Assembly (NCBI GenBank): GCA_014871385.1
Contig: CM026421.1
Coordinates: forward strand, 18,458,295 to 18,522,294
Source: Ceratodon purpureus
Lineage: Eukaryota; Streptophyta; Bryopsida; Pseudoditrichales; Ditrichaceae
Reading direction: 5' to 3'
Length of the DNA: 64,000 nucleotides
Part shown: piece after piece, positions 16,410-38,744 of the stretch
Layout: every line of letters begins with the position of its first letter
Numbering within the stretch: position 1 is the first letter of the stretch
Notes under the pieces: model-generated
The model's database searches: none
The model's input: only the letters and a program-made list of their open reading frames with translations
Told to the model about the DNA's origin: nothing
Position numbers and translations under genes: made by a program

Positions 16410-16864
16410 TGGTAAAGGGAGGATTTAACCACTAAACCCTAGCCTTCACAATCCCATCAAAACCCAACAAAACCCAACTAAACTAAGTGCTCCAAACCCT
16501 CATAGAATGCTGGAAATGTACAATACAAGTGCAAAAAGAGGTCAAAACTGCATAAAATGGGTCAAAACAGCCCCAAAACATGGTACAGCAGCTCCTAACA
16601 GCTCTCAGACCTCTCTGACTCTACCTGCTCTAGTGTAGAATGATCTCCCAAAACCCTAAACCTGCCTCTTAAACCCCCTGAAAACGGACAGAATCATCCA
16701 GTCGGCTTCGACAGAGTTCATCCAGTCGGCTCCGACAGAGTTCATCCAGTCGGCTCGGACAGAGTTCATCCAACCGACTGGATGACTGTCGGGGACAGGG
16801 ATGAAAAACTGTAAACAGCTAGTGGAGACTAAGGAAGGAGAGATTAAGGAATCTCCGGTTAACA
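16410..16864 (-). repeat. 5' LTR of the gag-only element
   Basis: 455 bp, apparently identical to the other LTR. Transcription should start here and run on the minus strand. The AGCCGAC-containing repeats lie about 80-170 nt from its 5' end, in the expected U3 promoter part. Confidence 0.9.
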
Positions 16865-18370
16865 CTCCGACATCTTGAAGAGGAAGACCTTGTCCAGATC
16901 TTTTCCTTGGCCAGGGAATTTGTTCTCTTGGACATATGCCCAGAGACTGATTCCACGCAGCTTTGTTATGGCATCCATAACTCCATAATTTCTCAACTGA
17001 CGGAATGACATTACCTTGTTGCGAATGTTCGGAGATGCCATGTCCTTGCACCTGTCAAGGACTGGAATAAGCTCCTCCATGGTGAGTTTCTTGGGAGGTG
17101 CATCCTCTGGCTGTAGCAAGTAATTCCCAATGAGAACCTTGCTCGCCTCCAGCACCACAGAGCTCTTTGTTGCTCCAGGTGTATTCTCGACCTGTTCTGA
17201 GATCAAACTATTGATCTCATCCTTTGAATCTCTGTAGTCGCCAACCTTAACAAGGTGATCGTGAGTTCCAAGATGGATACACGCCCTCGTTTGGTTGACT
17301 GTACCAGACACGTAAAAAATTCGGGCCCCACAGGTAGCAATGCAGGCGGGGGGTTCTTTGCATACCTTGCATACAACCGTGGAATCTTTTGGTGGTGGCA
17401 GGTTGACACTGAAGGCTTGAAGTGTGCAGCCGTCGAAGTCGGTCTCGTTCACATCACGAATCCGGGGGCGGCGTTCCAGGAATGGGCAGTCTTTGTTGAT
17501 GCAGCGCAGCCATCCGACACAGGTGGAGGACCGGAAAGACAGCCCCAAGTCGTTGGTGATGTTGGTGGTGATGGTCTTCGTCCAGAAGTGGCCGTCGTAT
17601 CGTTTGTCCATTCCTTGCATTGACTTTGCCTGCGACCGCGATGCTCCTAGTGCTGCAGGGGGTAATTCGAATAGAACTGGTCCATCAAAAACGGCAGGCA
17701 GGTACCCTACTCTCTCGTGACGCATTCTTGAGTAGTTTAGTTTTTTCAGAACGTTCTTACTACCAGGTCTCTCGGCAAGTTTGCGAAGTGAATCGACAAT
17801 ACTGATAGTACTATGCTCTGAATTTTGAGAGGAAGTGGAGCACTTTACAGGAGGCGGAACTGGGGGCCTAGACTCTACAGCGTCTTCTGTGACAAGAGGG
17901 GACGACATAGGAGGACTAGTTTCTTCATCTGAAGAGAGGGAGATGACCGGAGTATGAAGAGTAGCATCCACGCCTGACTCTACCTTGACCTTCACGTGAC
18001 GAGGAAGCGGAGTTTGAACAGTGCAAGTAGAGGACCGACGGGAAGTAAGAATCTCAGTAGACGTCTGCATCTGCGACTCTGTAAGTCCATAAACTCTATA
18101 TGTTCCAGGATACAAGCGCCAGTACAAAATTCCATCTTCACCCCTCTCGGACAACTGACCTAGAGTGTGAGTGACTTCAGTTGTTATCTCGTCAAAAATC
18201 TCCTCCTCGACCGTGATTGTATCCTCTCTAAAAGTGAATCTCATACTTAGGTGCTGGGAGGACACGCTAGCCATACCATCGGCACTGGTCTGAAAAGAGA
18301 GAGGGACTCCGAGGCCGTGAGCATAAAGGACGACTGAGCCTTGGACTTCCCGAGGAGCTGCGTACGCCAT

Positions 18371-18841
18371 CGTGTAACGTAGAGTGTGGGGATATGACAG
18401 TAAACGATTGAAGGTGCACAACAATGAGAGACTGATGAGGTCGAGTACAATGATTATATACAGTTCTAGTTGTTCGTTAAGAAATGAATCTGAATCACGA
18501 GTAACGGTAGTTAGTTAGACTGTAACAAACAGAGTTAGTTATTCCTGGCGCCGTAATGAGAATTTAAGTACACTTATATTAACTCATGTCAGTAGCACTT
18601 TAGATCGTGGTATGATTTTTTGTTGAAGACAGCATATCTAGGATTAGCTCTAGCCGTCTTTCATTCTGTAGTTCTAGCCAGGCCCTCTGTGATGGCTGAC
18701 CCATTGTCACCCATTCTATTTTAGTGGAGATTTTATTGAATTTTCGATCAATTTTAATTATATTTATTCGCACATGTACTTTAATTCAAAATTCATATAT
18801 CTGTAGTTGTACAATGTCAGTGCCCATTTTTAGAGGTACAT
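18371..18841. other. Transposase upstream region of element A up to the B insertion
   Basis: Homologous to 23,809-24,275 in element B. The promoter region is cut at GTCTACATCT, the target duplication of element B, and resumes at 34,189. No separate gene. Confidence 0.7.
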
Positions 18842-18851
18842 GTCTACATCT

Positions 18852-18930
18852 GAGGGAGACTTGTATGCGAGCGGAGAGCAGAGAGCGGAGATTTGGAGAG
18901 CGGAGAGCAGAAAATGAAGTCTGAAATCTA
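18852..18930 (+). repeat. Element B left terminal inverted repeat
   Basis: GAGGGAGACTTGTATGCGAG followed by AGCGGAGAGCAGAGAGC units and GAGATTTGGAGAGC; nearly identical to the element A left end. Confidence 0.85.
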
Positions 18931-19337
18931 AAAACAGTACTTTATTTACTAAAATTAGACACTAAAATTAGAAAACTGGAATATTCTGAGAATATTCCCC
19001 GACTGTTTCCTATTAAAAGCTGAATTTAAGACCTATGACCGTGGAATTTTTTCAAATATTCAGGGAAATATATGACATTTTGATCCTATTACCGTTTTAT
19101 TGTTTTAAATATTTTTGGTGGTGGACAGTAAATTTGACGCATTCCTGTAAATTTCTGCTTGTTATTGATCCCATCCCGTCTGATGAATGTTGGTGTCTGG
19201 TGCCATGTCCGTGATCTTAGGGCGCCAAGTCAATGCCTTAAGATATTTAAGTTCAAGGTGAGAGGAATGTCTTCTTCATTTCCGCATTCTTTTCGTTTTG
19301 TGTAAGGGACACTTCTGTTTTGTACCGATCCTCGATT

Positions 19338-19781
19338 ATGGAGGACATCGAGGTGGTTGCTGTTTCCCTTGGTGATGTTGTGTGCCCGTTTCAACCTTAC
19401 GTGGAGGGTGAGGGGGAAGACGAGCTATTTGGATGTGGCGAAGCACTTACACTTCCGGAGGTCGTGGATGTTGGAGTGGAGTTGGGAACAGACCCTTCAG
19501 TGTTACGAGATCCTAGGGAGATCATAGTGGTTGAGGACGAGGTGGAGAAGCCGCTGCCAGCTCATGCATACTCTAAGGTTGGGAAGATCCCACCTGGGAC
19601 TTATTCGAGGGACGCAGTTAAAGGGTCAAGTGGGAGTAGTCCATTATTGAAACGTCCCTACCTAGGTTTGGGAGTGCCCAAAATGGACAAGAATGTAGTT
19701 TCTCAAGTACAAGAGTCTGATATTGGTAGATATGCTGAGCATGCAAAGGGCAAAACTAAACGCATTAAGTACAGGGAATGA
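19338..19781 (+). CDS. MULE-associated acidic ORF, 147 aa (element B)
   Basis: Almost identical to the element A copy; I noticed Lys-to-Glu near the start and Ala-to-Val near the C-terminus. ATG chosen as in A. TATTTAA at 19,244-19,250 is the likely promoter box. Convergent with the transposase, 301 bp between stops. Function unknown; see the element A entry for conserved blocks. Confidence 0.65.
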   Translation: MEDIEVVAVSLGDVVCPFQPYVEGEGEDELFGCGEALTLPEVVDVGVELGTDPSVLRDPREIIVVEDEVEKPLPAHAYSKVGKIPPGTYSRDAVKGSSGSSPLLKRPYLGLGVPKMDKNVVSQVQESDIGRYAEHAKGKTKRIKYRE

Positions 19782-20082
19782 AATAGCTATTTGCAGCAAT
19801 TTCTTGGTTGAATTAAAGTGATGATTTACTATAATATTTCCGTGCTTAACGGAGTGAAGGGTACAAGTGGTCGAATATAGTAATGTGACATGCATTGCAT
19901 TATTAGTTGGACCAATTACTAGGCGTGTCAATCAATGTGAATAGTGGGACTCTATATATTAAAAAAAACAATACAAATACGTTTTGCTAATTCGATACAG
20001 AGAATAATTCAAATAGCAATTACTTTGCAACCTAGTTGCCACCGTCCACGTGAAAGAACATGGACTAAAAGTAGCCTGCCCC

Positions 20083-23000
20083 TTAGTTTCTTGCTGAAGG
20101 GTGTGTCTGAATTCCGCTTTCGAGAAGTATCTTGACCTCGTTGAAGCTATAGGTAGGCGCGTGGATGAAAAGGTCATCGTCGGGATCGCGGTTGCAAACC
20201 TTCAATAGGATGAAATAAACGTGCTTACAGTAGGAGAATTGGACCCGCCCACGAAACTTAGTCATGGTCTTCCGAAATGCTGGGCAACTGCAACCAGGGT
20301 TGGAGCTGATGGTGATCTGGTAGTGAGAGACATTAGGTGGAATGCCGGAATCCAACCCGATGATGCAACCATGGCCAGGATGAGGTATCATGGTGACAGA
20401 ACGGAGGCGAGCTCTGAGGGGTTTGGAGGAGCCCATGGAGAGTCGCTGCGGCGGATTAGGGCGAGTGGCAGTGCGCTTCACCATCTTCCCGTCTCTCTTG
20501 CCTGGGTAGCGGTCAGCATCTGCAGGAACTGGCAAGGAACTTAGATTTGCAGGTGGCGGAGCGGAGGAGAAGAGGCGACGTGGGGAGACCGGCTTCTTCT
20601 CCGGGAGCTGGAATCCAGCCGCCTCTAGTGCACGAATTTCTGTGATGTTAAGGTTTGTCCCGAGCTTGACAGGCCAGACGGCTGGAATTGGAGGCATCTC
20701 CTGGGTTGCAGAGTACTTAGCAACCCACTTGCGCCTTGAGCCCTTCACGCACCTTTCGATGTGGTCAGAACAGAAGAAGAATTCCGTCCTCTCCGAAGTA
20801 TTCCGGCGGATGTTGGTCCAAACTCCTGTGTAGGTAGGTGCAGCAGTAGCGTTCACGTTCCTCACAATTCTCTCCGTACATTTCTTCTTAGTGACAGCTC
20901 TCTGGGCCCAGCAGCACTTTGCAGAAGTCTTCAACAATCTTGCAATGTGCCATACCTTGACGTCAACCTTGGACTCCTGAACTGCATTCACCTGGCGGAT
21001 CCCGATCTCGTTTCGTGGGGTCTCTGGAATTGTCACGGCAACCTCTGTAGGAGAGTGGCCTTCGTCGACCTGCGTGTCATCTTCGGTGTCATCCTCGACA
21101 ATGATGGGCATCTGGGAGATGCGAGCCCTGACATTACGACCAGGTGCTTTTGGATGGGAGTAGTTTACCTTGTCCGGACGGTGAGATTCTTCCTCAGCTC
21201 CAAGGGGTAGGTCGGGCTTCCGCTTCATGGATCCGAAGACTTCCTCTCCAGCTAGGCGTGGCAGACGTGTGCAGAACTCCTCTGCTCCAGGCATCTCTAA
21301 CATGGGGTCTTTAAGCACATGCGGTCTCCCTGTCAACTTCGCTCTGCGCTCTGCCGCTCGTAGCTTCAGTTCCTTCTTGGATGGACCCGTCCCTCCAACT
21401 TCCCCTTTCAGAAACTGGTAGAAGTTGACAACTTGAAGAAATGCCCGAACGTAGTCATCAACTGTAGCCACGTAGAGGTCGGCGCACTTGTTACCAGAGG
21501 ACTGAAGCCATTTGCCGTGAACAGTTTCAGCAAGGTTACACGTAGGCATTTCTGCAAGTTCATCCTCAGTAAATTTCTGTACATTCAAGGGTAGTACTGG
21601 TTAGATGTGGTTCGGCATTCAGTGCGGTGGGGTAACTGCGAAGTAGAAAACAGAGTGAATGAGTAAGGGAAAAAAAGGTACCTCAGTCATGAAGCCGCCC
21701 CACTGGCGAAATCGGAAGTGCCTGAAACAAAGCCAGAGGTCCAATCTAGCTAGGGCCTTCTCTGAGACAGCTCCAGTAGAAACCCACCAACCTTTGATTG
21801 CGAGGTAGAGAGTATCCGCCTCCTCCATTGTTTTCGCTGCCCGGTATTGCTGGCACATTTTCTTGTGTTGCTCCCACAGTTCTTCAGGGATGTACTTCTC
21901 AGTATTATTGACCATGGACTGCGTCCAATGAAATAGGCAGGTCCTCTCCCGATCCTCCATGCGGTCCTCCTTGTTCCCTGTCCCGTACACGATCCGTACT
22001 GCATTCCAGTTGGCCTGTGCGCTGTCTGCCATGAAGCCCTTGAAGTTTGGCGCTGCAACGCCATTCCTCTCCATGACAGCATTTAGGTTTCTCCAAAACA
22101 GGATCTGGGCATCGCAGTCGTCGGACATCATGTCACAGGTAGCAATCGTCATGACCCGGCAGTACGTGGAGTCGTACACGTGGCATGCCAACGTGGTCCA
22201 ATCGCGTACCCGCTTGACGTGGTCAAACATCACCCAGGCATTCTCGAGATCACCGCCGGGCTGCATCCTGGACACGAGGTCGACACCGCTTCCGGGACCC
22301 ACTTCCGACATCTTGAAGAGGAAGACCTTGTCCAGATCTTTTCCTTGGCCAGGGAATTTGTTCTCTTGGACATATGCCCAGAGACTGAGTCCACGCAGCT
22401 TTGTTATGGCATCCATAACTCCATAATTTCTTAACTGACGGAATGACATTACCTTGTTGCGAATGTTCGGAGATGCCATGTCCTTGCACCTGTCAAGGAC
22501 TGGAATAAGCTCCTCCATGGTGAGTTTCTTGGGAGGTGCATCCTCTGGCTGTAGCAAGTAATTCCCGATGAGAACCTTGCTCGCCTCCAGCACCACAGAG
22601 CTCTTTGTTGCTCCAGGTGTATTCTCGACCTGTTCTGAGATCAAACTATTGATCTCATCCTTTGAATCTCTGTAGTCGCCAACCTTAACAAGGTGATCGT
22701 GAGTTCCAAGATGGATACACGCCCTCGTTTGGTTGACTGTACCAGACACGTAAAAAATTCGGGCCCCACAGGTAGCAATGCAGGCGGGGGGTTCTTTGCA
22801 TACCTTGCATACAACCGTGGAATCTTTTGGTGGTGGCAGGTTGACACTGAAGGCTTGAAGTGTGCAGCCGTCGAAGTCGGTCTCGTTCACATCACGAATC
22901 CGGGGGCGGCGTTCCAGGAATGGGCAGTCTTTGTTGATGCAGCGCAGCCATCCGACACAGGTGGAGGACCGGAAAGACAGCCCTAAGTCGTTGGTGATGT

Positions 23001-23808
23001 TGGTGGTGATGGTCTTGGTCCAGAAGTGGCCGTCGTATCGTTTGTCCATTCCCTGCATGGACTTTGCCTGCGACCGCGATGCTCCTAATGCTGCAGGGGG
23101 TAATTCGAATAGAACTGGTCCATCGAAAACGGCAGGCAGGTACCCTACTCTCTCGTGACGCATTCTAGAGTAGTTCAATTTCTTCAGAACGTTCTTACTA
23201 CCAGGTCTCTCGGCAAGTTTGCGAAGTGAATCGACAATACTGATAGTACTATAACCTGAAATTTGAGAGGAAGTGGAGCACTTTTCTGGAGGGGGGACTG
23301 GGGGCCTAGACTCTGCAGCGTCCTCTGTGACAGGAGGGGACGAAATAGGAGGACTAGTTTCTTCATCTGAAGAGAGGGAGATGACCGGAGTATGAAGAGT
23401 AGCATCCACGCCAGACTCTACCTTGACCTTCACGTGACGAGGAAGCGGAGTTTGAACAGTGCAAGTAGAGGAGCGGCGGGAAGTAAGAATCTCAGTAGAC
23501 GTCTGCATCTGCGACTCTGTAAGTCCATAAACTCTATATGTTCCAGGATACAAGTGCCAATACAGAATTCCATCTTCACCCCTCTCTGACAACTGACCTA
23601 GAGTGTGAGTGACTTCAGTTGTTATCTCGTCAAAAATCTCCTCCTCGACCCTGATTGTATCCTCTCTAAAAGTGAATCTCATACTTAGGTGCTGGGAGGA
23701 CACGCTAGCCATACCATCGGCACTGGTCTGAAAAGAGAGAGGGACTCCGAGGCCGTGAGCATACAGGACGACTGTGCCTTGGACTTCTCGCGGAGCCACG
23801 TACGCCAT
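20083..23808 (-). CDS. MULE transposase, two exons, 1,206 aa
   Basis: Cuts and pastes the element. Exon 1 is 23,808-21,682 and exon 2 is 21,576-20,083, with a 105-bp intron (donor GTACCT, acceptor TACAG) in phase 0. Near residues 285-370 a GCM/WRKY-type finger is visible: CINKDC then THDH. The catalytic core follows: Asp in ACHVYDSTY (about 546), Asp in GFMADSAQ (about 594), the MULE C-x2-H signature CLFHW (about 623), and a candidate Glu near 662. A second Cys/His cluster (KKKC...FFFCSDH) lies in exon 2. A SWIM finger (CSCPAF...YCKH, about 1,135-1,158) is near the end. The gene diverges from the plus-strand gene across a 600-bp shared promoter; the minus-strand TATATAA at 23,892-23,898 is about 85 bp upstream of the ATG. 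Intact by eye. Confidence 0.88.
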
Positions 23809-23891
23809 TGCGAAACGTAGAGTGTGGGGATAAGACAGTAAACGACTGAAGGTGCAGAAGAATGAGAGACTGATGACTTCGAGTACAATGA

Positions 23892-23898
23892 TTATATA
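23892..23898 (-). promoter_or_regulatory. TATA box of the element B transposase
   Basis: TATATAA on the minus strand, 84-90 bp before the start codon. The same box is at 18,454-18,460 in element A. Confidence 0.5.
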
Positions 23899-24339
23899 CA
23901 GATCTAGTTGTACCTTTGGTAATAAATCTGAATCACGAGTAACGGAAGTTAGTTAGAATATAAGTGACAGAGTTAGTTAACCCTGGCGCCGTAATGAGAA
24001 TTTAAGTACACTTATATTAACTCATGTCAGTAGCACTTTAGATCGTGGCTTGATTTTTTGTGGAAGACAGCATATCTAGGATTAGCTCTAGCCGTCTTTC
24101 GTTCTAGGACTCATGGCCAGGCCTTAGTGATGGGTGACCCTTTGTCATCAATTCTATTTAAGTGAAGATTATATTGATTTCCAGATGAATTTTAATTATA
24201 TTTATTTGCACATGAACTTTAATTCAAATTGCATATATCTTTAGTTGTAGAATGTCAGTGACCATTTTTAGAGGTACATGTCAGTGATCATTAATATTAT
24301 GAAAGGAGGAGTTGATCACCATTAGTTAGGATTGATCAG

Positions 24340-24347
24340 TATATAAG
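24340..24347 (+). promoter_or_regulatory. TATA box of the long plus-strand gene (B)
   Basis: TATATAAG, 61 bp before the ATG at 24,408. Equivalent boxes: TATTTAAG at 34,406-34,413 (A) and 50,084-50,091 (C). Together with the transposase box it makes the region 23,809-24,407 a bidirectional promoter. Confidence 0.5.
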
Positions 24348-24407
24348 CAGAGCTGAAGTTCTATAGTGTACTTTATTGTGAGGAGGGTCATTAGCTTACT
24401 TAGACAC

Positions 24408-25722
24408 ATGAAGGATAGTGGAGGGTCTACTCCCTCCACTTATGTCACTCCTAAACCGAGAAGAAAACCATGTAAGACAGATTTTACGAATAGGAGAGCG
24501 AGGAAGAGGAGAGCATCACGTAAGAAGGTAGATACGAAAGGTGACAATTTGAGTGCACCTGTTAAGAGGAGAGGAGAGGGACTGCCTGTAGCCTTAAAGT
24601 TTTGTAGCATACGTAAACTCATCCTAGAATCTATAGTGGAGGTTAAGGAGGAGGTTGTTGAGGACAGCGTTGTTGAGAATCGAGATCAGGATCAAGACGT
24701 TCGCTTAAGTGGGGTTGGACGTGAAGAGATGACGGATGAATTAGAGTTTAATTGTAGTCAAAGAGTAGAGTCTCCGCAACCATCGTTTGGGAAGAAGGAC
24801 TCTGGCTTAAGGGAGGTGCATTCCCAATCAGACGAAGATTGTCTCTCTGAACCAGTAAGTGTACTACACTGTCTTTGCAAATGTTTTATATTGTTGGGCA
24901 ACAACACCATGTTATGTTAATCAAGTTATTTTAGACACATTTGAACTTTAGTATGTAGTGATAGAAGTTCAACACTTGAACCAGCTATTGAACGTAAAGG
25001 GATTTTATACTGTACCGTAGTGTACATTGAGTGAAGGAAGTCCAGTGCTTGTAAATGGCTGAACGACACCCGTGCCATATCGAGTGGTCAGATTGTACAT
25101 AATGGTGCTTGGTAATTTCGTTACGAGTACTGGAGGGAAGCGCGAGAATTGAAGGCATCAAATATTTAAATGAGACCCGTAGTGGGTGTGGGCCGTAACC
25201 AGTTTACTTGGCAGTAGAGAGTTGCCGGTAATTGTGATGGGATGTTTAACTGAATCTTTCGCTTGGAGTGTAAAAGTCAACTTAGCATGGTGGATTCTCT
25301 TCGAACCGGCCTGTAGGACAGACACTCAACTGGATAGGTCCGATGCGATTTCCACACCTTGGAAAGAAATGCTTGGTAATTGTCCACTTCATTGTTTGTT
25401 CTCTCAGAGGTTTCGAGTGGACGGAGTGGAGGGAGACGAGCTGCGTGGGTGCGCGAGGAGGGTTCGTGCAGCCATCATGGAGGCGGGGAGCGACTCGGAC
25501 GGCGTTGCGGGGCGAGGCAATGCACGAGAGGGTCAGCGGGTGCCGGGAGTGGGAGATGGAGAACCTGCCGGAGGATTCGTCGATGTCGGAGGAGATACCG
25601 ACCAGGAGGAATCCGCAGGAGCAGGTGATGCAAGAGTCGGGAGTGGGCGGGATTCGGATGGGAGGCTTGAGCGAGCTGCAAGATTCGGAGATGCCGAGCG
25701 AGAATCAGATGAAGAGGACGAG
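24408..25722 (+). CDS. Long MULE gene, 5' exons: basic then acidic region (B)
   Basis: Exon 1 (24,408-24,854, 149 codons, donor GTAAGT) encodes a Lys/Arg-rich stretch (PRRKP, RRARKRRASRKK, PVKRRG) that looks like nuclear localisation or nucleic-acid binding, then an acidic half. Exon 2 (25,408-25,722, 105 codons, acceptor CTCAG, donor GTAAAT) starts near ARRVRAAI and is Gly/Glu/Asp-rich. Both joints are in phase 0, and the next coding exon (28,736) is also phase 0, so I read these as the N-terminus of the ParB-like/methyltransferase protein with the palindrome array in its big intron. They could instead be a separate gene. No known domain. The start is the ATG conserved in A and C (ACACATGAAG). 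Confidence 0.55.
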
Positions 25723-26445
25723 GTAAATGAGGTTCTGGGTTATGATGTTTGGGGTGGTGCGTTGTTGCTTGCTTGGGGTGCATTGTTGCTTGCTTGGGGT
25801 GAGTTGTTGCTTGCTTGCGGTGCTGCTGGAAGCAATGGCTGCGGTGCTCGAGGTGATGAAGCTATGCCTTGCTGCTGTGCTTTCGGATCTATGCGGTAGT
25901 CCCCTTGCTGGTTATGCTTGCGGTGCTTGCAGTGTTTGACTTCCTTGCAGTGTTTGACTTCCTTGCAATGTTTGACTTCCTTGGTTGTTGTCAATGGATT
26001 GTGGGTAGTGGAGATTTGTGTTGGTTGCGGCTCGTGAATGGATTGTGGTTTTTGGGAGTTGCAGATTCTGGATGGATTGCGGTTTGTGGGGCTTTCGGTT
26101 TGTGGGGGTTGCGGTCCATGGGGGTTTGTTGGAAGTTCGGATCGATGTTTGGGTTCCCATCTTGGCTGCTGTAAGCCTTGCTTGCGGTGCCGCGGTCGTT
26201 ACCCTTGCTTGGGATGGCTGAGGCTATGCTTGCTAGGGATGGCTGAGGCTATGGCTGCTTTTGCCTTGCTTGCTATGGCTGAGGAGCCTTGCAGAGCTAT
26301 GCCTTGCTTGCGGTGGCGGAGGCTCTGCCATGAGGGCAGGGCCGATGAGGCACATTGGATTCATTTTTCTTTGTGTATTTTTTTGAGAATTTGTTTGGTA
26401 TTTGTTTGGTATTATTTTGGTATTTGTTTGGTATTTGTTTGGTTT
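25723..26445 (+). other. Start of the large intron (B), short simple repeats
   Basis: Non-coding by position. It holds local duplications: TTGCTTGCTTGGGGTG units at 25,760-25,820, and CAGTGTTTGACTTCCTTG units at 25,928-25,984. GGTATTTGTTT units occur at 26,395-26,445. Open frames cross it on both strands but are compositionally simple, and none continues the flanking exons convincingly. Confidence 0.5.
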
Positions 26446-28615
26446 TTTTTTAATTTTCTTTGAATTTTTCTGTTAATTATAAGGAATTATCCTCACAAAT
26501 TAATGATGCGAATTTTAATTATTCTGAATTTGTTTGGGTATTTTAATGAATTTTTTTGTATTATTTTAAAAAAAAAACCCCCGCAAGCCTACTGTCGTCA
26601 ACGACAGTAGGCCGCGAGGGGGGGGGATAATTTGGGGATTTTTGCAATTTGTTTTTTTTTTTAATTTTCTTTGAATTTTTCTGTTAATTATAAGGGATTA
26701 TCCTCACAAATTAATGATGCGAATTTTAATTATTCTGAATTTGTTTGGGTATTTTAATGAATTTTTTTGTATTATTTTAAAAAAAAAACCCCCGCAAGCC
26801 TACTGTCGTCAACGACAGTAGGCCGCGAGGGGGGGGGATAATTTGGGGATTTCTGCAATTTGTTTTTTTTTTTAATTTTCTTTGAATTTTTCTGTTAATT
26901 ATAAGGGATTATCCTCACAAATTAATGATGCGAATTTTAATTATTCTGAATTTGTTTGGGTATTTTAATGAATTTTTTTGTATTATTTTTAAAAAAAAAC
27001 CCCCGCAAGCCTACTGTCGTCAACGACAGTAGGCCGCGAGGGGGGGGGATAATTTGGGGATTTCTGCAATTTGTTTTTTTTTTTAATTTTCTTTGAATTT
27101 TTCTGTTAATTATAAGGGATTATCCTCACAAATTAATGATGCGAATTTTAATTATTCTGAATTTGTTTGGGTATTTTAATGAATTTTTTTGTATAATTTA
27201 AAAAAAAAAAACCCCCGCAAGCCTACTGTCGTCAACGACAGTAGGCCGCGAGGGGGGGGGGATAATTTGGGGATTTCTGCAATTTGTTTTTTTTTTTTAA
27301 TTTTCTTTGAATTTTTCTGTTAATTATAAGGGATTATCCTCACAAATTAATGATGCGAATTTTAATTAATCTGAATTTGTTTGGGTATTTTAATGAAATT
27401 TTTTGTATTATTTTAAAAAAAAAACCCCCGCAAGCCTACTGTCGTCAACGACAGTAGGCCGCGAGGGGGGGGGATAATTTGGGGATTTCTGCAATTTGTT
27501 TTTTTTTTTAATTTTCTTTGAATTTTTCTGTTAATTATAAGGGATTATCCTCACAAATTAATGATGCGAATTTTAATTATTCTGAATTTGTTTGGGTATT
27601 TTAATGAATTTTTTTGTATTATTTTTAAAAAAAAACCCCCGCAAGCCTACTGTCGTCAACGACAGTAGGCCGCGAGGGGGGGGGATAATTTGGGGATTTT
27701 TAAGATTTTGTTCCTTTTTTCTTTTATTTGAGCTATTTTGTTCATTAAAATGGATTTTGCTCTTTGAAATGATGATAATTTCAATTCGGTTGGAATGGTT
27801 AACGTTTTTTTAATGTTTTTTTTTAAAAAATTCAACAAAATTAAAACCCGCAAACCTACTGTCGTCAACGACAGTAGGCCGGGAGGGTGGGGGTCCATTT
27901 GGGGATTTGTTAATTTTTGTTTTTTTTTTGTTTTCTTTGAATTATTTGGTTCAAAAAAATGGATATTGCTTATTGGTAATGATCATAATTTCAGTTCGGT
28001 TGTGGTGGTTTACGTTTTTTTTAAGTTTTTTTTTTAAAAATTCAAAAAAAATAAAACCCGCAAACCTACTGTCGTTGACGACAGTAGGTCGGGAGGGTGG
28101 GGGTCCATTTGGGGATTTGTTAATTTTTGTTTTTTTTTTTGTTTTCTTTGAATTATTCGATTTATTAAAATGGATATTGCTTATTGGAAATTACCATGAT
28201 TTCAGTTCGGTTTGGATGGTTATCGTTTTTTTAATGTTTTTTTTTTAAAAATTCAAAAAAATTAAAACCCGCAAACCTACTGTCGTTGACGACAGTAGGC
28301 CGCGAGGGTGGAGGGGAATTCGGGGATTTGTTTATTTTTGTTTTTTTTTTTTTCCTCTTTGAATTATTTGGTAGTCTAAAATGGATATTGCTTATTGGAA
28401 ATGATCATGATTTCAGTTCGGTTGGGATGGTTAACGTTTTTATAATGATGTTTTTTTTTTTTCTGAGAAATATAAAGTCCCGCAAACCTACTGTCGTCAA
28501 CGACAGTAGGCCGGGAGGGTGGGGGTCCTTTTGGGGATTTTTAAATTTTTGTTTTTTTTTTTTTTTTCTTAGAATTATTTGGTTCATTAAAATGGACTTC
28601 GCTCACGAAAAATGA
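26446..28615 (+). repeat. Intronic palindrome array of element B, 10 units of about 211 bp
   Basis: Each unit is AT-rich with T- and A-runs. It carries a palindrome with 11-nt arms CCTACTGTCGT and ACGACAGTAGG around a 2-nt centre, then a G-rich run and TTTGGGGATTT. Palindromes start at 26,588, 26,799, 27,010, 27,222, 27,435, 27,646, 27,855, 28,065, 28,276 and 28,487; spacing 209-213 bp. The first six units form one subfamily (GCAAG before, GCCGCGAGGGGG after). The last four form another (GCAAA before), three of them with GCCGGGAGGGTGGGGG- or GTCGGGAGGGTGG-type flanks. The centre is CA in most copies and TG in two. The arms are perfect in every copy I read. Confidence 0.92.
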
Positions 28616-28735
28616 TGATGATTTCAATAAGTATTGATGAGTTATTAAGGTCTTTTTGGGAGCCATGTCGCGGTTGTGGTTTGTTATTTCGTAGTTGTTG
28701 TTTTTCAAATACTTATAACATTGTTTGTGATTTAG

Positions 28736-29382
28736 GACTCTGACGGAGATCATCTGGGGAGCGAACGTCAAGACCCGACGCCTGCAGAAACTGAGGTATT
28801 TTATTCAATTCTCAATTTATATTGCTTTCTTATGTTTATGAATTTGAGTTCTATTCGGCTTATACCCATCTTTGTTTCCTTCTCTTTTAAATATGGAAGT
28901 TAATCCTTACTTCATTTCCTCTACTCTAGGTATCTTCTGATGCTCCTGAGATGTCTGCTACTTCTCCCATTTCTGTGATCAATGTTTCCGATCTATCGGA
29001 TTCATTTGATCAGTACTACTGTACCTGTGATGTAGCGAACCCTGTTGGTGTGGAAAGTGGACCTCTCGAGGTCCACTCTCCACAGTACATGCCTACCTCT
29101 CCAGTGTACATGCCTACCTCTCCAGTGTACATGCCTACATCCCCGGTGTATGAGCCAACTTCCCCGGGCTATATGCCCACGTCTCCTCTACAGGGCTCTC
29201 CGCCGATGTCTCCACCCTCTCCTTCCTCGCCGATTAGAGTCAGGAGGCCAGCCCATGTCGTCTTTGCTCTGCCGGCAATTCTACCGTTCCCTGTCCAACA
29301 GACCAGGCGATTTTGGAGGAGGCGCCGTCACTGGAACTGTAGACAGTCTAAGGAGTACTATAGTCGATCCTCACGTAGATAG
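28736..29382 (+). CDS. Long MULE gene, exons with RNA Pol II CTD-like heptads (B)
   Basis: A 60-bp exon (28,736-28,795) encodes a short acidic segment. The next exon starts at 28,930 (acceptor CTCTAG, phase 0) and runs at most to an in-frame stop at 29,382. At 29,086-29,190 it encodes five consecutive heptads: YMPTSPV three times, YEPTSPG and YMPTSPL. They match the Y-x-P-T-S-P-x pattern of the RNA polymerase II C-terminal domain. A Ser/Pro-rich stretch and an Arg-rich tail (RRFWRRRR) follow. I could not find a good phase-0 donor linking this exon to the next one at 29,528. Either the gene ends here or the link uses an unusual site. CTD-like repeats could recruit CTD-binding factors (capping, splicing, termination); this is inference. 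Confidence 0.55.
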
Positions 29383-29527
29383 TTTTATCAATCACGATTG
29401 ATGATTGAGTTGTTAAAAGAGAGATGACAGTATGAAGATATATTGTTACTTTCTTTTACATACTTGTCTACTTTGCATGACTTTCTTCGATTGTGCTTGT
29501 TTTCCTAATTTGCGCACCCCCTCGCAG

Positions 29528-32500
29528 GTTACGCAAACACAAGATGTGTTGGTGAAACCATCTTGTCCGATAAACTTGAAGACTGCTACGGAAGGGGAAC
29601 TGGAACATCAATCCCAGTACAAGATTGACTCCAACGCCGTCATCAACAAGCTCAGGATCAAGCCATCGCAGAAGTCCCGAATGACAGTTCCCCTGTGCAG
29701 GATGATCCCAATGGCAAAGGTTAGACCAGTGGGCGAAGTGGGGGTACAGCATTTGGAGCGGGAGTTCGTGAAGGGGTATAGAGATGGCGACCGCGTCATG
29801 TACATCTCCATGTACAACAACGAAGAGCAGACAAGAGATGTTACGGATGATGTCATGGCTAGATGGAGCCCATTATGGAGGGATGCGAATGATGCCTTTG
29901 AATCTGAGCTTCAAAGTGACGAGGAGTGGTCGCGATTCTCGGGGAAGATGTTTTTTGTCTGGGAAGGTAACCATCGCCTCTCAGCATGGCTTCGTCATAT
30001 CAACAAGCATCATGCAGACGACCCGTCATGGCACATATCTGTGCACTGCATAGTCCTCGACCCCCGTGGCCATGTTGGCAATCTTCTTCACGCAATGCAT
30101 GACATCAACTGGTATGTACTTGTTCCATTTGTTTCTCTTATTCCATTTGTTACTTTATCTCATATCCATTATTCATCATACTTAATGTGGTTTATTTTCA
30201 GGTTGACTGAGAATGACTACGTGAAGAGTAATCTCCCCGCCAAACTATTTCGAATCCGCTCTTTCGGAATGATGAAGCTGGAGGAATTTAAAGACCTCCT
30301 CAGTCCTCAGGAGTATGACGCATGTCAGAAGAACAAGCCACCTAATCCCTCCTGGTTTCCCTTGACAACTAAAGTTTTCATCGCATTTCTGTACCGAGTA
30401 AGTCCTATCTCCTCTCTCTATTTGCTTCTTATTTTTCAATACCCATGGAATTTCCTAAGGCTTACTTCTCTTTCTATAGCGGGAACTCGCTACGGCCTCC
30501 GATGAAGCAGCCACTGCCTACCGCAAGAAGACACCCGAGAATGAGCAGTCTGCAAGTGCAGTTTGGGATGTCATGAATGAGGCAATGGATAGAATGGTCG
30601 AAGCCATCAAGAAGAAGGACTTTACCAAGTACTTGGCTATCGCAAATCCCAAGAATGGTGACGACTTCCTCAATGAGGTGACTCACTGATCATTGTTCGA
30701 TTCACTGTTTCGTTTGACTTCAATAATTTCTGTATTAATCCTTTTAAAATGTTCGGTGCTTCTTGCAGATCAATCGCCATTACAGTCTCAATAATAAGCC
30801 TGAGATGTCGCTCGAAAAGCTTCAGAGGTTTGTTCCAGCGGCCGTTGAGGCCAAATACAAGGCTCGTTGGTTGAAGTGGTGGAACTCATCCCCGAGTGCT
30901 CGAACGTCTTACAGATTTCTGCCATCTGAATTCAAAGACACCGAACTGGACCCATGGTTGAACAAAGCTTCATTCTGGGCTGGGGTAATTTCCATACGAA
31001 ATCCTTTCCGATTCATTATTCCCTTGTTTTTTTACCGTATACCTTCTTGGTTGCAACTTATATGATTTTTGTATTACAGTTGGAGGAAGCCGTCATTTAC
31101 GAAGTCGAGGACATAATCAAAAGGGAGAACCTCGACATCAATTGGATGGCATTTCCTGATGTCCAACAGCCGGGCGATTTTGTCGAGAGTTCACGTATTC
31201 TCTTGTGGGACAAGGCCTTCCCTACGTTCATTGGAAAAAAGGCTGTTAACCACTTCGACAAGAAGTCCGACTTCGCAAAATTCCCTGGAACCGCTGAAGT
31301 TGTGAAGCGGGTTACTTACCGGTACGTGAAGTAACTTAATCGCATTTCCATTTCATAATTTTCATTGCAAATACTTACCTTTATATGTCTTCCCTTAGGT
31401 ACTTCAAGCGAGAGCTTATTTTGAAGGGGGCCATCAGCGTTCAGCAACTCTCCAAGTACTTCAAGCTTTGGACGCAGACAACATCGGACCAATGTATGTA
31501 CTCTCCCCAGCAGATAAAAAGGTACAAAGCTGCTCACCTGGATGCTGGATGCTGGTATCTTGATTGTATTGGTGGTTTCACTATTGACTCGGAGGCGGAC
31601 GTCAAGATGCTACACGATGCCGGTGAGGTGGTGGTGGAAGCCTCCTTCGATGGTGCAGACGAAGACAAAGGACAAGAGGATCAATCTTCCGCTCCTCCAC
31701 CAAAGAAAGGGAGAGGGAGGCGACTGAAATCTCTTCGTTCTAAGTCGGAGGCATCACAGCAAACCGGTGCGGCGTCTTCCCAGCCAAAACAGAAGGAACC
31801 AGAGCCCTCTCCAGGTATTGTCGTTACGAAGCCTACTCCAGCTTCTTCGCCGGCTCCTTCCTCGATCAGTGCTTCCGAGGTCACCAGAAGTCTCCTCGAG
31901 CAGAGGAAAACCAAGAAATACCCACAGAGTACCTCTTCGGCTGGAACTCTCAATTCCTCTCAGGTTTATGTCATCAACTCCTCTGTGCCTTTGGTTCTAT
32001 CCCGACACAAGGAACTTGAAGACGTTGGTGGCGATCCCGAATGGAACAAGGCTCTAGACATCATTCGAATGGTATGATTCGTTGATTCATTCATTCCCTT
32101 CAATTCTGATATTCTGTAATCCTTATATTTTCTAACTATGATTTCTTGTTTATTTAAGTTTGGAGGAGGCCGCCACAGCCGAGTTCCTGAGAGATGCCAA
32201 CTGGAGAATCACTTGGGATTCGACTTGATCATTGCCGACATTCCTGAGAATCTTCCAGTCCCCACCATATCCAATCCCTCCTACGTCCCTCCGCCTTGGA
32301 ACAAACGCGGCAAGGATTATTTGGAGGACCTCTTCGAATTCGCAAGACATTTCTTGCAGTTTGATGGTGCTCTCTGCATCATCCACAACAACGACCAACG
32401 TCTCGCTTCGAAGATTTCCGAAGTTGCTGCTGAGGATGGCTTCGTGCAGCACCAAGACTGGTGGGGCTTCAATGGACTAGGCTTGGCTCACCCAACGATG

Positions 32501-33505
32501 CCCGGCTCCTTGGTATGTACATCATAATCTTTGCTTGTCTTTGAATTCTACTAAGTTATCTTCTTAATTGCACTTACACATTGTTGTTTCTCGCAGTCTC
32601 TTCGATTCTGGGTGCGCGTCTTCATTCGTGGTGGTACCCCCCCATCCAAGTTTTCTTTTCAAACGAAGAAATCCGATGTCGTTCACAACGACCTCCACAT
32701 TACCGAGAGTGATGCCATTCTTAACTTCACCCAGCTAAACTCGCAGCTCATGAATGGAGAGGTGCCGTGGAGAGGCCCGAGGGAGAAAGCCCCTGAGATG
32801 ATGCAGGGCATCATTGAGGAGATGACTAAGCCCGGTGACATAGTCTTCGAGTGGTCGGCGGGAACAGGTAATCCTCCAATAACAGTTTCGGCATTTCCAA
32901 TCCTCTGATTTTCTCCACAGGAACTCACTACTTATCTATGCTACGTGTTTTCAGGTGCCTCCCTCAAGGCTTGCCAGAGTATTGGTCGTCATATTATAGC
33001 TTGTGAGGAGGACGAAGCAATCTTCAACGCCCTTCTCAAACCGTATATGGCTACGTCATCTGCCATGGGCCCTCCTAAACATCCTAGGCCGGCAGCAGCA
33101 GACGAAGCGCCTCCAAAGAGAGCAAGAAGACCTGATAAGTGGTGTAAGTCTTCTATTTTTTGTTCAAATTCTCCAAGCATTTCTTCTCTTTGCACCTCTA
33201 CGTATTCAATCTAACCACAATCGGTTTTCTATTGCAGAGTAGTTTCGGCAACACCGCCACGTGGGCCAACATCAGTGTCCACTCCATCGTGGCGTCTTCA
33301 TTCCAGCCCGATTCAGCCTTTTATACTTCCGGACTACGCGGAGGACTTAGCACAGGCGTTTCAATCTAGAGCCCTCACATATGTTCCTACTCGGCCAACT
33401 ACTTTTGATCCTAGGGCTCTGATATTCGTCGATGACGAGGCGGTAGAAGGAGATTCCGAGTCATCTAGTTCTGAGGGTGGAAGTAGTGATTCTAGCATAT
33501 TGTGA
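29528..33505 (+). CDS. ParB-like / beta-class DNA methyltransferase-like protein (B)
   Basis: Ten exons: 29,528-30,111; 30,202-30,397; 30,480-30,677; 30,769-30,984; 31,080-31,321; 31,399-32,071; 32,159-32,512; 32,597-32,867; 32,955-33,143; 33,240-33,505. Introns are 77-98 bp, all GT-AG and in phase, giving 1,062 codons. The first exon holds a ParB/sulfiredoxin-like block with WEGNHRLSAW at 29,960-29,989; GxHR is the nucleotide-binding signature of that fold. A basic Ser/Pro/Lys-rich linker follows in exon six. The last five exons form a methyltransferase fold in beta-class order. The motif IV region (LIIADIPE; canonical DPPY/W) comes before motif I (PGDIVFEWSAGTG, then GRHIIACEED; canonical DPFAGSGTT...GR..IG.E). 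Prokaryotic ParB-N-like/methyltransferase fusions are known. Catalytic residues diverge, so activity is uncertain. The last acceptor is my choice to keep the frame. Confidence 0.7.
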
Positions 33506-34099
33506 GTTTGAACGAGGCTTCGGTCTTTCATTGTTTGCATTTGATTTGATTTGATTGAATTGGAGTTCATTGCCTATTCCTTCGTCTACTCTACTCCAAA
33601 CATCTTAAAGTAGTTATGTTTCTCATTTCCAATTCGTCTCGGGTTATGTAAAGGATGAAACGCCAACTGTAAAGCTCAAAATATAACACGAAGAGTGAAA
33701 TGTTATAAAATAAATGCTCAAAATTTAGTGTTTCAGACCATAAACTTTAGCTTTCAGACCATAAAGTTTAAGGTTTCAGACCATAAACTTTAGCTTTTGT
33801 GATTTTTTTTTTCCCTTTACTTTTCTATTAAATATTTAATGTTGTGATCTAAGAACATGATGCTGGAATACTCCTATCTAGATCCAAGAAGGGACCAAAT
33901 CTAAAGGATTGAATGGATGACGTCATCATGACATCAGCCCTAATTTGTACCAAAAAAATAAAACGTAAAAAAATTTTTACCAGACATAACCCTGAATTCC
34001 ACGGGAATACGCTCCTTTACTAAAAAAAGTAAAAAGACCTTACCTTTTTTTAGTTTCTTTCCACGGTTATAGGGTTTACTTTGCTTTAAAAAATTTGGC
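33506..34099. other. 3' flank of element B
   Basis: Holds a triple repeat of TTTCAGACCATAAACTTTA (33,733-33,796) and the subterminal motif TCCACGGTTATAGGG (34,060-34,074). No gene. Nearly identical to 42,723-43,315 in element A. Confidence 0.7.
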
Positions 34100-34178
34100 T
34101 AAATGTCAAATCTCTGCTCTCCATTCTCTGCTCTCTGCTCTCCGCTCTCTGCTCTCCGCTCACATGCTAACTTTCCCC
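34100..34178 (-). repeat. Element B right terminal inverted repeat
   Basis: Read inward on the minus strand: GGGGAAAGTTAGCATGTGAG, then GCGGAGAGCAGAGAGC units and GAGATTTGAC. It matches the left end from TGNGAGCGGAGAGC inward. Confidence 0.85.
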
Positions 34179-34472
34179 GTCTACATCTAAAACAGAGAAT
34201 ATTTTTTAATAAGACATGCATTAAAGGCATCATTCAAATCTTTTAATTAATAGTGTGCTTTGATTTTTTCTCCATTTTAAAAGGTTGATAATTTGAACTG
34301 TAGAACTGTTATGGGCACTCTTAAAATAAAGAAGGTCGAAAATGTGTCAGTTGTCAAGATGCTATATCAACTTAGGGTTGTAACGAAATAGTTGTACGTT
34401 ATAGGTATTTAAGCTGGGAGGAAGTTCTGAAGAGAGCCTTTATTTGAGAGAGTCCTCCCTTTGGTTAGACAC

Positions 34473-35441
34473 ATGAAGCAGAGTGGAGGGCCATCTCCCT
34501 CCACTTATGTTTCTCCAAAACGTAGAAGAAAACCAGGTGGTACAGATTTTACGGATAGAAGAGCTAGGAAGAGGAAGGAGTCACGTAAGAAGGTAGAATG
34601 TAAACGTGACCATTTGAGAGCTCCCGTGAAAAGGAGAGGAGCAGGTTTGCCTGTAGCTTTAAAGTTCTGTAGCATTCGTAAACTCATCCTAGACTCTATT
34701 GTGGAGGAGGGGAAAGAGTTTATAGAGAATACCGTCGTCGAGAACCACGAGCAGGAACATGAGATACTCTTAAGTGGAGTTGAACGTGAGGCCATGACGG
34801 AAGAATTGGTTTTTAATTGTAGTCAAAGAGTAGTGTCACCGCAGCCGTCAATCAGATTCTATGACTCTTTAACAGGGGAGCCGGATTCTCAATTAAGCCC
34901 AAGTCTCAAGTCCGATGAGGTAAGTATTACTATACCTTATGACTGCTGTGGATTCGTTTTTTTAATTCAGTATTATAAAGAGACGATTCTTTACATATCG
35001 AAATTTTACTTGTATTATGAAAGAGGCAGGAGGGTATACATTAACTCACTTAGGTTCCTCGGAATTCACACATGTAAATTTTGAATGTATTTGCGAGGTA
35101 ACCAGAGGATAAGAGAAGATGATGATGCAAGTGGAGAGGAGGGTTCCGAACTGGACCATATGCGTTTGATTGCGAGGCGAGCAAGGTTCGATATTCTCAG
35201 AGCAGGGGAAGGGGGCGACGCAATGTCTGCAGCACACGAGCAGATGAGAGGAGACGAGCAGATGAGAGGAGAGGAAGAGGAGCAGGTTGGCGGTGAGGCC
35301 GTGGGGCAGGCTCCAGTCGATATGGCCGCGGGGGAGCAGGGAGGTGGAGAAGAACAGCCTGAGCTGGCTGGGGATACAAGCGAGGACGAGGAGAGGACGG
35401 ACAGGGACGTTGGAGACGAAGATCCCGAGGATGGAGACCAG
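34473..35441 (+). CDS. Long MULE gene, 5' exons: basic then acidic region (A)
   Basis: Exon 1 (34,473-34,919, donor GTAAGT) is about 70% identical in protein to the B copy and keeps the Lys/Arg-rich block (RRARKRKESRKK) and LPVALKF..IRKLIL. Exon 2 (35,106-35,441, acceptor ACCAG, donor GTACGA) encodes RLIARRARFDILRAGEGG and then a strongly Glu/Gln/Gly-rich acidic run ending EDGDQ. All joints are phase 0. The promoter box is at 34,406. This part of element A is far more diverged from B than the flanking modules are. Confidence 0.55.
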
Positions 35442-36049
35442 GTACGAGGCTATGAGCTTGTGGGGAGGTAGAGAGAATCCCACGTGTTTGAATGATGAGG
35501 GTATTGAATGGGGTTTTGTTAGAATCTTTGGGTTTACTCAAATGTACGGACTTGGAGAAATGCTTTGTACTTTGTGATGTGGGTTGTGTGTCAGCATTGG
35601 ATTCTGTGATGTTTGGATTGTGGGCTGCGGGGTTTGTGTTCGGTTGGAGGATTCGTGTTTGTTGGTGATGGGGGATGCAGCTTGATTGAGAATGCGGGTT
35701 ATTTGCGGTTCGGTTGGGTTTTTGGGTTCTGGGTTGTGTGTCTTCGATGTGTGGGTTGTGGGTTGCTGCTGCTCGGGAGTTCTTTGGGATTTGCGTGGGG
35801 GTTTTTAAAAACGCTGCTCAGCTCGTATTCAGCATTCCGAATGAAGCCACTATGTCAAGCTGTGCCGACATGCTTCAGGTTGTGTTGCTGGTTATGTGGG
35901 CTGGCCGGGCGCTTGAGCTTCGTTGACGTGATCTCTTTCGGTTCTTTGTAGACTTGGTAAGGAGGAGTGACTAAGTGTCGAAGTGTCTTCGGAGCGACTA
36001 AGGTCATTGACTTAATATACGTGTATGATCGAGTTCGAATACGTATTTG
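35442..36049 (+). other. Start of the large intron (A)
   Basis: G/T-rich sequence with many TTGTGGG/TTGCGG words, similar in texture to the equivalent intron starts in B and C. No supported coding region. Confidence 0.45.
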
Positions 36050-38599: not shown

Positions 38600-38744
38600 T
38601 TTTATCAATCACGATTGATGATTGAGTTGTTAAAAGAGAGATGACAGTATGAAGATATATTGTTACTTTCTTTTACATACTTGTCTACTTTGCATGACTT
38701 TCTTCGATTGTGCTTGTTTTCCTAATTTGCGCACCCCCTCGCAG

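What the first reader, a model, noticed from the sequence alone, without database searches (positions are those of the whole stretch)
18852..34178. A giant MULE that carries a ParB-like/DNA methyltransferase gene with its own palindrome array
Element B is complete, with a perfect 10-bp duplication and terminal repeats. It encodes a MULE transposase plus a multi-exon gene I know of in no described MULE: basic and acidic exons, an intronic palindrome array, CTD-like heptads, a ParB-like domain and a methyltransferase-like domain. The same plan recurs in A and, as far as visible, in C. MULEs usually carry captured host fragments; here the cargo is a conserved, ordered system, so it may act in the element's life cycle (self-marking by methylation, silencing escape, copy maintenance).
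Basis: partly seen in the sequence, partly recalled or inferred. Interest (0 to 1): 0.93.

Follow-up and report, generated by a model that had tools for sequence, protein, structure and literature searches.

The report
Giant transposon with ParB–methyltransferase-like gene
A large jumping gene from an unidentified eukaryote carries, besides its transposase, a multi-exon gene for a methyltransferase-like protein whose own intron holds a regular array of conserved palindromes; similar protein genes are already reported in algal transposons, but the palindrome array and an altered active site are new leads on how such elements might recognise themselves.

Summary
B (18852-34178) is a complete ~15.3-kb DNA element with a perfect 10-bp target duplication, nested inside a second complete element, A (7576-43394, its own 10-bp duplication); 34,178 and 43,394 are the right ends of B and A. 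B encodes a small acidic protein, a two-exon 1206-aa transposase (MULE-like by duplication, ends, a sub-threshold SWIM finger and motifs; no Pfam MULE hit) and a 13-exon gene for a 1336-aa protein. That protein's C-terminus matches permuted amino-methyltransferases (PF01555, E 6e-7), but its catalytic tetrapeptide reads DIPE, so methylation is unproven; the ParB-like part is motif-level only. The heptads lie in an alternative terminal exon with its own stop. The gene's second intron carries 10 (B), 8 (A) and 51 or more (C) palindromes 207-224 bp apart; A/B and C palindromes differ by compensatory changes on both arms. Best explanation: an element protein binds the array for self-recognition, VANC-like in logic. 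ParB-methyltransferase genes in algal transposons of other superfamilies are in print, so this is a new variant, not a new kind. Co-occurrence outside this window could not be tested.

The parts
18852..34178 (.). Element B, complete DNA transposon
   Evidence: 10-bp duplication on both sides, inverted terminal regions
18842..18851 (.). Left target-site duplication of B, GTCTACATCT (right copy 34179-34188)
7576..43394 (.). Element A, complete element into which B and an LTR element inserted
   Evidence: duplication AAAGGTCTAC 7566-7575 / 43395-43404; self-alignment
19338..19781 (+). Gene 1 of B, 147-aa acidic protein of unknown function
   Evidence: ORF in A, B and C; B-C 43.5% aa identity, dN 0.428, dS 0.955; no Pfam hit
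20083..23808 (-). Transposase gene of B: exon 1 23808-21682, exon 2 21576-20083, 1206 aa
   Evidence: SWIM-like CxC...CxH (PF04434 E 0.014, below cut-off); B-C dN 0.19 dS 1.44 for the C-terminal part
24408..33505 (+). Gene 3 of B, 13 exons, 1336 aa: 24408-24854, 25408-25722, 28736-28795, 29528-30111, 30202-30397, 30480-30677, 30769-30984, 31080-31321, 31399-32071, 32159-32512, 32597-32867, 32955-33143, 33240-33505
   Evidence: introns GT-AG, phases compatible, open throughout; prediction from sequence, no transcript data
28930..29382 (+). Alternative terminal exon with five YxPTSPx heptads and a stop codon
   Evidence: A has four heptads; 2 differences in 429 aligned bases between A and B
25723..28735 (+). 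Intron 2 of gene 3 of B, holding the palindrome array
26588..28510 (.). B array: 10 palindromes CCTACTGTCGT-NN-ACGACAGTAGG (NN = CA eight times, TG twice), spacing 209-213 bp
36094..37591 (.). A array: 8 copies of the same palindrome (NN = CA), spacing 207-213 bp
29528..30111 (+). ParB/sulfiredoxin-like stretch (KVRP...GYRDGD...VWEGNHRLSAW)
   Evidence: motif order matches phage ParB N-domains, not significant statistically
32159..33143 (+). Permuted amino-methyltransferase-like domain (exons 10-12 of the 13); catalytic tetrapeptide DIPE; SAM-binding motif EWSAGTG
   Evidence: PF01555 E 5.9e-7, 30.1 bits against a cut-off of 26.7, phrog_3008 E 9.5e-12, PDB 5hfj E 3e-5, alignment with five phage enzymes
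45608..64000 (.). Element C, left end to window edge (right end not seen)
50151..51111 (+). C gene 3, exon 1 (50151-50597) and exon 2 (50770-51111)
51654..52291 (.). C minor array, 3.7 units of 174 bp around GGCATTGTCG-TTGC-CGACAATGCC; four copies, one of them with all ten outer pairs
52318..64000 (.). C major array, 54.3 units of about 212 bp around TACATTCG-TGCA-CGAATGTA, runs off the window

Best explanation
B is a complete large DNA transposon, most likely of the Mutator (MULE) superfamily. Its third gene makes an element-specific accessory protein with a ParB-like part and a permuted amino-methyltransferase-like domain. The palindrome array in that gene's own intron is the cis-acting landing pad of an element-encoded dimeric DNA-binding protein, most simply the gene-3 product. 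Binding lets the element recognise its own copies and alter their chromatin or modification state, keeping them expressible, in the way VANC does for VANDAL elements. Shown: element anatomy, open gene models, methyltransferase similarity, arrays, symmetry-preserving change of the palindrome between array families, conservation of exon 1 across three elements. Inferred: the splicing, the ParB-like fold, binding of the array by this protein, and the anti-silencing or marking role. Because the catalytic tetrapeptide is DIPE, action may be by binding (with or without SAM) rather than by methylation.
For: Palindrome columns are more conserved than the other columns of the unit: A 1.000 v 0.845, B 0.983 v 0.854, C major 0.992 v 0.961 mean column conservation. 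Over all units, arms pair by Watson-Crick in 110 of 110 cells in B and 88 of 88 in A (11 pairs) and in 455 of 459 in C major (inner 9 pairs). On 10 chosen units (8 distinct rows) from A, B and both C arrays, 6 of 11 pairs changed on both sides, none on one side only, and 0 of 500 shuffles reached 6. Centre CA occurs in both orientations in B, as expected for a two-fold DNA site. Exon 1 is 447 nt in A, B and C, dN 0.14-0.25, dS 0.54-0.66. MTase similarity. A ParB-like plus MTase pairing is reported in algal transposons of other superfamilies, which argues that the pairing serves transposons. VANC precedent: an element protein binding tandem-repeat motifs in non-coding DNA of its own family.
Against: No binding, expression or methylation data. 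ParB likeness is not significant: one of 40 shuffles and a control segment scored as high. DIPE at the catalytic site. In the C minor array only 33 of 44 cells pair and three of four copies are clearly imperfect; the one nearly perfect copy was the one put into. The outer two pairs of A/B are absent in C major (0 of 102 cells). A and B share the palindrome although their exons 1 and 2 differ by 36% and 60% of aligned amino acids, so those exons do not track the palindrome. Array homogenisation alone could account for much of the within-array uniformity. C's MTase half is out of view. AlphaFold models were unusable (mean pLDDT 35 and 38).
Confidence: 0.5

Rival explanations
1. The palindromes are transposase sites (internal or regulatory), and the ParB-MTase gene acts independently of them.
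For: Transposase is conserved alongside the array in A, B and C; transposases commonly bind repeated inverted motifs (general knowledge).
Against: Of 79 matches to TCGNNNNCGA in the window 68 lie in the arrays; the 11 others have arms of only 3-4 bp, and none lies in the terminal repeats. C, with at least 51 palindromes, lacks the transposase N-terminal part, though a transposase could act in trans.
Confidence: 0.15
2. The palindromes act in RNA: each unit of the intron transcript folds into a strong hairpin that works as a processing signal, small-RNA source or splicing element.
For: Predicted RNA hairpins in the three units folded: -33.5 kcal/mol (z -5.6), -20.3 (z -3.1) and -23.3 (z -3.6); the array lies in an intron on the sense strand. 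No Rfam family in the window.
Against: No G-U pair among the arm cells of A, B and C major (one in C minor), no one-sided change, and the two-base centre occurs in both orientations in B; few independent changes, so this is weak.
Confidence: 0.15
3. Gene 3's right half is a passenger: a captured or decaying gene with no role for the element, and the array is a selfish satellite.
For: DIPE active site; from 28930 to the stop of gene 3, A and B differ at 5 of 4555 aligned bases, introns included (summed), so selection there cannot be measured.
Against: A 1336-aa frame over 13 exons is intact in B, and exon 3 to the end is intact in A; exon 1 is under purifying selection; the same kind of protein is reported in unrelated algal transposons.
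Confidence: 0.15
4. Active self-methylation: the protein methylates adenine or cytosine in its own array or element, marking it as self (a sub-case of the best explanation).
For: SAM-binding half kept (EWSAGTG; matches PF01555 and DpnA); published proposal for algal relatives.
Against: Catalytic DPPY/SPPY is DIPE; in a rotifer N4C enzyme, SPPY changed to APPA lost activity (PMC8885841, passage).
Confidence: 0.2

Closest known systems
ParB-like plus DNA-methyltransferase accessory proteins of giant algal transposons (Sola1-1_Ec32 of Ectocarpus, 1104 aa; PMC12477816, passages read; green and red algal cases cited there, not read)
   Same: Large DNA transposon with a separate gene for a ParB-like plus N4C/N6A-type methyltransferase-like protein, proposed to bind and modify its own element
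   Different: Here the transposase is MULE-like rather than Sola1 or EnSpm; there is a palindrome array in the gene's own intron, an alternative exon with heptads, and a DIPE catalytic motif. I did not see those sequences, so the last three may be shared
VANDAL elements with VANC (Arabidopsis; PMC10398659, passages read)
   Same: MULE-superfamily elements with accessory genes; tandem repeats with a short motif in non-coding DNA that diverges between families
   Different: VANC binding is shown experimentally; no ParB or methyltransferase domain is mentioned in the passages I read; the motifs here are long palindromes in an intron of the accessory gene
Bdelloid rotifer N4CMT (PMC8885841, passages read)
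   Same: Permuted N6_N4_MTase domain of bacterial type in a eukaryote
   Different: That is a host gene with SPPY and a chromodomain, linked to silencing of transposons; this is transposon-encoded with DIPE
Beta-type amino-methyltransferases of phages and bacteria (PF01555; phrog_3008; DpnA 5hfj; CcrM 6pbd)
   Same: Order of motifs (catalytic region before SAM-binding region) and the SAM-binding half
   Different: Catalytic tetrapeptide; embedded in a 1336-aa eukaryotic multi-exon protein
Bacterial ParB-parS (recalled)
   Same: ParB-like motifs, and palindromic sites present in the same genetic element
   Different: Fold not demonstrated; no ParB HTH match in Pfam; sites are more numerous and evenly spaced

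Membership tests
Mutator-like elements (MULE) | 8-11 bp target-site duplication (range from PMC6446971, passage) | tested here: met
   10 bp for B and for A
Mutator-like elements (MULE) | Terminal inverted repeats (usual, not universal) | tested here: met
   Inverted AGAGCGG-rich ends of A and B; similar left end of C
Mutator-like elements (MULE) | DDE transposase of the MULE family | tested here: inconclusive
   No Pfam MULE domain and no relevant PDB match; D...D...C-x2-H and C-N-x2-E motifs read by eye, MULE/IS256 signatures recalled, from no call
Mutator-like elements (MULE) | SWIM or other zinc finger | tested here: inconclusive
   PF04434 E 0.014 in B and 0.19 in C, both below the cut-off; CxC-x18-CxH kept in both
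Permuted amino-DNA-methyltransferase (PF01555) | SAM-binding half and permuted order | tested here: met
Permuted amino-DNA-methyltransferase (PF01555) | Catalytic tetrapeptide of the DPPY/SPPY type | tested here: not met
   DIPE at the aligned place; DPPY or DLPY in the five phage enzymes; same in A
ParB/sulfiredoxin superfamily | ParB N-domain by profile or fold | tested here: inconclusive
   No Pfam or PDB match; expected motif register to 9 phage ParBs but probability 2%, equalled by 1 of 40 shuffles and by the MTase segment; model pLDDT 35
Algal transposon ParB-MTase accessory proteins | Both domains in one protein encoded inside a DNA transposon | tested here: inconclusive
   Inside B: met; MTase part met; ParB part motif-level; no sequence of that family was at hand for direct comparison
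VANC anti-silencing proteins | Sequence-specific binding to tandem motifs with loss of silencing marks | not testable with these tools
   Motif array present; needs experiments; similarity to VANC proteins was not tested

The most novel reading that the evidence does not exclude
A eukaryotic transposon carries a parS-like system: a ParB-like protein loads on regularly spaced palindromes inside its own gene, spreads along the element and, with its SAM-binding but catalytically altered domain, marks the copy as self. Protein and palindrome drift together, so that each element lineage recognises only its own kind.
Probability: 0.2. Interest if true: 0.88.

Novelty: new variant of a known kind. 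Interest (0 to 1): 0.62.

Why it matters
Why giant transposons of algae carry ParB-methyltransferase-like genes is an open question raised in print. This element offers something that the passages I read do not mention: a candidate target. A 20-24 bp palindrome repeated 8 to 51 or more times, its symmetry kept while its sequence changed between element lineages, makes the question directly testable by gel shift, DAP-seq or native long-read modification calling. The DIPE motif warns that such proteins need not be methylating enzymes.

Tried and rejected
Viral contigs: ParB part, MTase domain and transposase core found no relatives (close relatives only); the A/B palindrome gave one contig with a single site in unremarkable context (I judge this chance, without knowing the collection's size) and the C palindrome none. 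Prokaryote contigs: no relatives. tblastn in phages: MTase hits in 336 records at E up to 1, none covering 80% of it; ParB part three hits at E 5. AlphaFold for the putative ParB exon and for the transposase core (alignment of B and C) gave mean pLDDT 35 and 38, so no fold search was run. Rejected: that exon conservation between A and B shows selection on the MTase. One search seemed to show it (5 exon against 72 intron differences), but the per-segment table shows that the differences cluster near the array (52 of the 72 lie in 28520-28735), while introns further right are as identical as exons; A and B are mosaics with near-identical right parts and a diverged centre. Rejected: KDZ superfamily (its CxC features and 8-bp duplication are recalled; not seen here). 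Rejected: heptads and MTase in one reading frame (stop at 29380). Nine literature searches listed no paper that I recognised as reporting a MULE with a ParB or MTase gene; I judged by titles, abstract starts and a few passages, and the library lacks most subscription journals, including the two works on green and red algal cases. A first full count of arm pairs in C used a frame shifted by one base (C major rows not used); one search is the corrected count.
Full report
What is there. No whole genome is held for this window; introns, an LTR element and the element type say eukaryote, species unknown. Self-alignment and the sequence show three related large elements. A runs from 7576 to 43394 and is flanked by AAAGGTCTAC on both sides (7566-7575, 43395-43404). 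It is interrupted by an LTR element (11048-16864; LTRs of 455 bp, 100% identical; of its two long ORFs tested one is gag and one has no match) and by B. B runs from 18852 to 34178 and is flanked by GTCTACATCT on both sides. C starts at 45608 and leaves the window inside its array. The ends share an inverted AGAGCGG-rich region.

Genes of B. Gene 1 (19338-19781) is a 147-aa acidic protein found in A, B and C. The transposase gene lies on the minus strand in two exons, 1206 aa. Gene 3 is divergent from it: 13 exons with GT-AG boundaries and matching phases give 1336 aa. After exon 3 there are two choices of equal phase: 28930-29379 (five YxPTSPx heptads in B, four in A, then a stop) or 29528 onward, which leads through the ParB-like stretch to the methyltransferase-like domain. 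So the heptads and the methyltransferase belong to alternative products, if both are used. The introns rest on sequence signals that I chose by eye, but the PF01555 and PDB matches run across the junction of 32597-32867 and 32955-33143, which supports that splice, and the boundaries of exons 1 and 2 are in phase 0 in A, B and C.

Transposase. The duplication length fits MULEs (8-11 bp, PMC6446971, abstract and passages). A CxC-x18-CxH segment gives a sub-threshold SWIM match (E 0.014 in B; 0.19 in C). The MULE domain of Pfam is not detected, PDB gives nothing relevant, and the AlphaFold model from two sequences is not usable. I file it as MULE-like, probably a MULE. B versus C: 72.4% amino-acid identity in the C-terminal part, dN 0.190, dS 1.441, that is, long purifying selection. 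C's match to B stops at 22707 of B, so C lacks the transposase N-terminal part and probably moves in trans if at all.

Methyltransferase-like domain. PF01555 matches at E 5.9e-7 above its cut-off, PHROG 3008 at 9.5e-12, DpnA (5hfj) at 3e-5 and 19 PADLOC models at E up to 1, mostly methyltransferases, best 1.1e-8. Most of this is the C-terminal SAM-binding half. Aligned with five phage enzymes, the catalytic tetrapeptide, DPPY or DLPY in the phages, is DIPE here. A has the same residues. Catalysis is therefore doubtful; in a rotifer enzyme SPPY changed to APPA lost activity (PMC8885841, passage).

ParB-like stretch. KVRP...VQHLEREFVKGYRDGDRVMYI...GKMFFVWEGNHRLSAWLRHI has the motif order of ParB N-domains. 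hhalign with the first 150 residues of nine phage ParBs aligns these motifs, but with probability 2% (E 0.024); one of 40 shuffles scored as high, and so did the MTase segment used as a control. So the likeness is suggestive only. Pfam, PDB and tblastn searches were negative. A genuine phage ParB (L007) also gave no ParB N-domain match in Pfam at E up to 0.1, only its HTH, so a Pfam miss says little.

Arrays. Intron 2 of gene 3 holds, in B, 10 copies of CCTACTGTCGT-NN-ACGACAGTAGG at 209-213 bp; in A, 8 copies at 207-213 bp. In C there are 3.7 units of 174 bp around GGCATTGTCG-TTGC-CGACAATGCC and then 54.3 units of about 212 bp around TACATTCG-TGCA-CGAATGTA: 51 palindromes found with up to 5 substitutions allowed, 44 of them with no change in the 21-base GTACATTCGTGCACGAATGTA, neighbours mostly 210-224 bp apart (47 of 50 spacings; the other three 427-441). 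Counting all units, the arms pair by Watson-Crick in 110 of 110 cells in B, 88 of 88 in A (11 pairs each) and 33 of 44 in the minor C array, where three of four copies are clearly imperfect; in the major C array 455 of 459 cells of the inner nine pairs and 0 of 102 of the outer two. Palindrome columns are more conserved than the other columns of the unit (A 1.000 v 0.845; B 0.983 v 0.854; C major 0.992 v 0.961). A, B and C major consensus units share a block CCCGC...palindrome...G-rich...TTTGGGGATT, outside which C has little in common with A and B. On an alignment of 10 chosen units, 8 distinct (7 of the 18 A and B units; of the minor C array only the best of 4; 2 of 51 of the major C array), 6 of 11 pairs changed on both sides, none on one side only, and none of 500 shuffles reached 6; 95.3% of 86 cells paired. 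The rows were chosen to show the variants, only about three lineages underlie them, and 4 of the 6 doubly changed pairs rest on the single minor-array row. What is firm without it: between A/B and C major two neighbouring pairs changed on both sides (TG/CA to AT/AT), in 18 of 18 against 51 of 51 units. The symmetry is kept while the sequence changes. RNA folding of three units also gives strong hairpins, so an RNA role is not excluded.

Mosaic history. A and B differ at 5 of 4555 aligned bases from 28930 to the stop of gene 3, introns included (summed), at 0 of the first 483 aligned bases (17 gap columns), by 0.8-2.7% in the transposase exon segments, 10.9% in the transposase intron, 12.8% just upstream of gene 3 and 24% at the right edge of the array intron, and by 36% of amino acids in exon 1. 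Exon 1 of A is closer to C (75%) than to B (64%). The centre has thus been exchanged or the flanks homogenised. It also means that A and B give no independent evidence on the MTase half. Exon 2 is acidic and fast-changing (34-47% identity over aligned residues), with a shared LRxxARRxR-type motif by eye.

How it most likely works. Anatomy, symmetry and precedent point to self-recognition: an element protein binds a two-fold site repeated about once per 211 bp (roughly a nucleosome repeat, my inference) and changes the state of the element. VANC proteins of VANDAL MULEs do this with tandem motifs in non-coding DNA (PMC10398659, passages). The CpG observed/expected ratio is 1.27 and 1.36 in the B and A arrays against 0.53-0.86 in the other twelve segments listed, the C array being 0.69. 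That fits unmethylated A and B arrays but may simply reflect the CpGs of the conserved block, and C does not follow it.

Known or new. [quoted passage not shown] So the cargo kind is known. I recognised no paper on such a gene in a MULE or on a palindrome array with it in nine searches (listed in Tried and rejected), with the limits stated there. Verdict: a new variant of a known kind, with a testable target site as its main addition.

Noticed in passing
11048-16864: LTR element inside A's transposase gene: LTRs 100% identical over 455 bp, 5-bp duplication CTCCG, Ty3-type gag (PF03732 E 1.9e-12); the second long ORF has no Pfam match; possibly gag-only.
   Followed up: partly
6909-7295 and 43315-44259: A appears inserted in a host region with minus-strand ORFs on both sides; the two ORFs on the right have no Pfam match, the left one was not tested.
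   Followed up: partly
7566-7575, 18842-18851: The target duplications of A and of B both contain GTCTAC; with two insertions a target preference cannot be told from chance.
   Followed up: no
52318-64000: Strong strand asymmetry of C's array (GC skew about 0.37-0.40, AT skew about -0.32 to -0.35 from 54 kb on), G runs on the sense strand: a possible R-loop-prone intron of more than 12 kb.
   Followed up: no
45608-49946: C's transposase lacks the N-terminal part present in B while its array is the longest, so C looks non-autonomous for transposase.
   Followed up: partly
2281-2898: GC-poor minus-strand ORF of 205 aa with no Pfam match.
   Followed up: partly
3747-5387: 546-aa ORF with a C-terminal cysteine-rich, RING-like stretch by eye; no Pfam match.
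   Followed up: partly
L007:110-1731: In Klebsiella phage vB_Kpn_F14 a ParB-family gene lies directly beside a PF01555 methyltransferase gene, the same pairing as separate genes.
   Followed up: no
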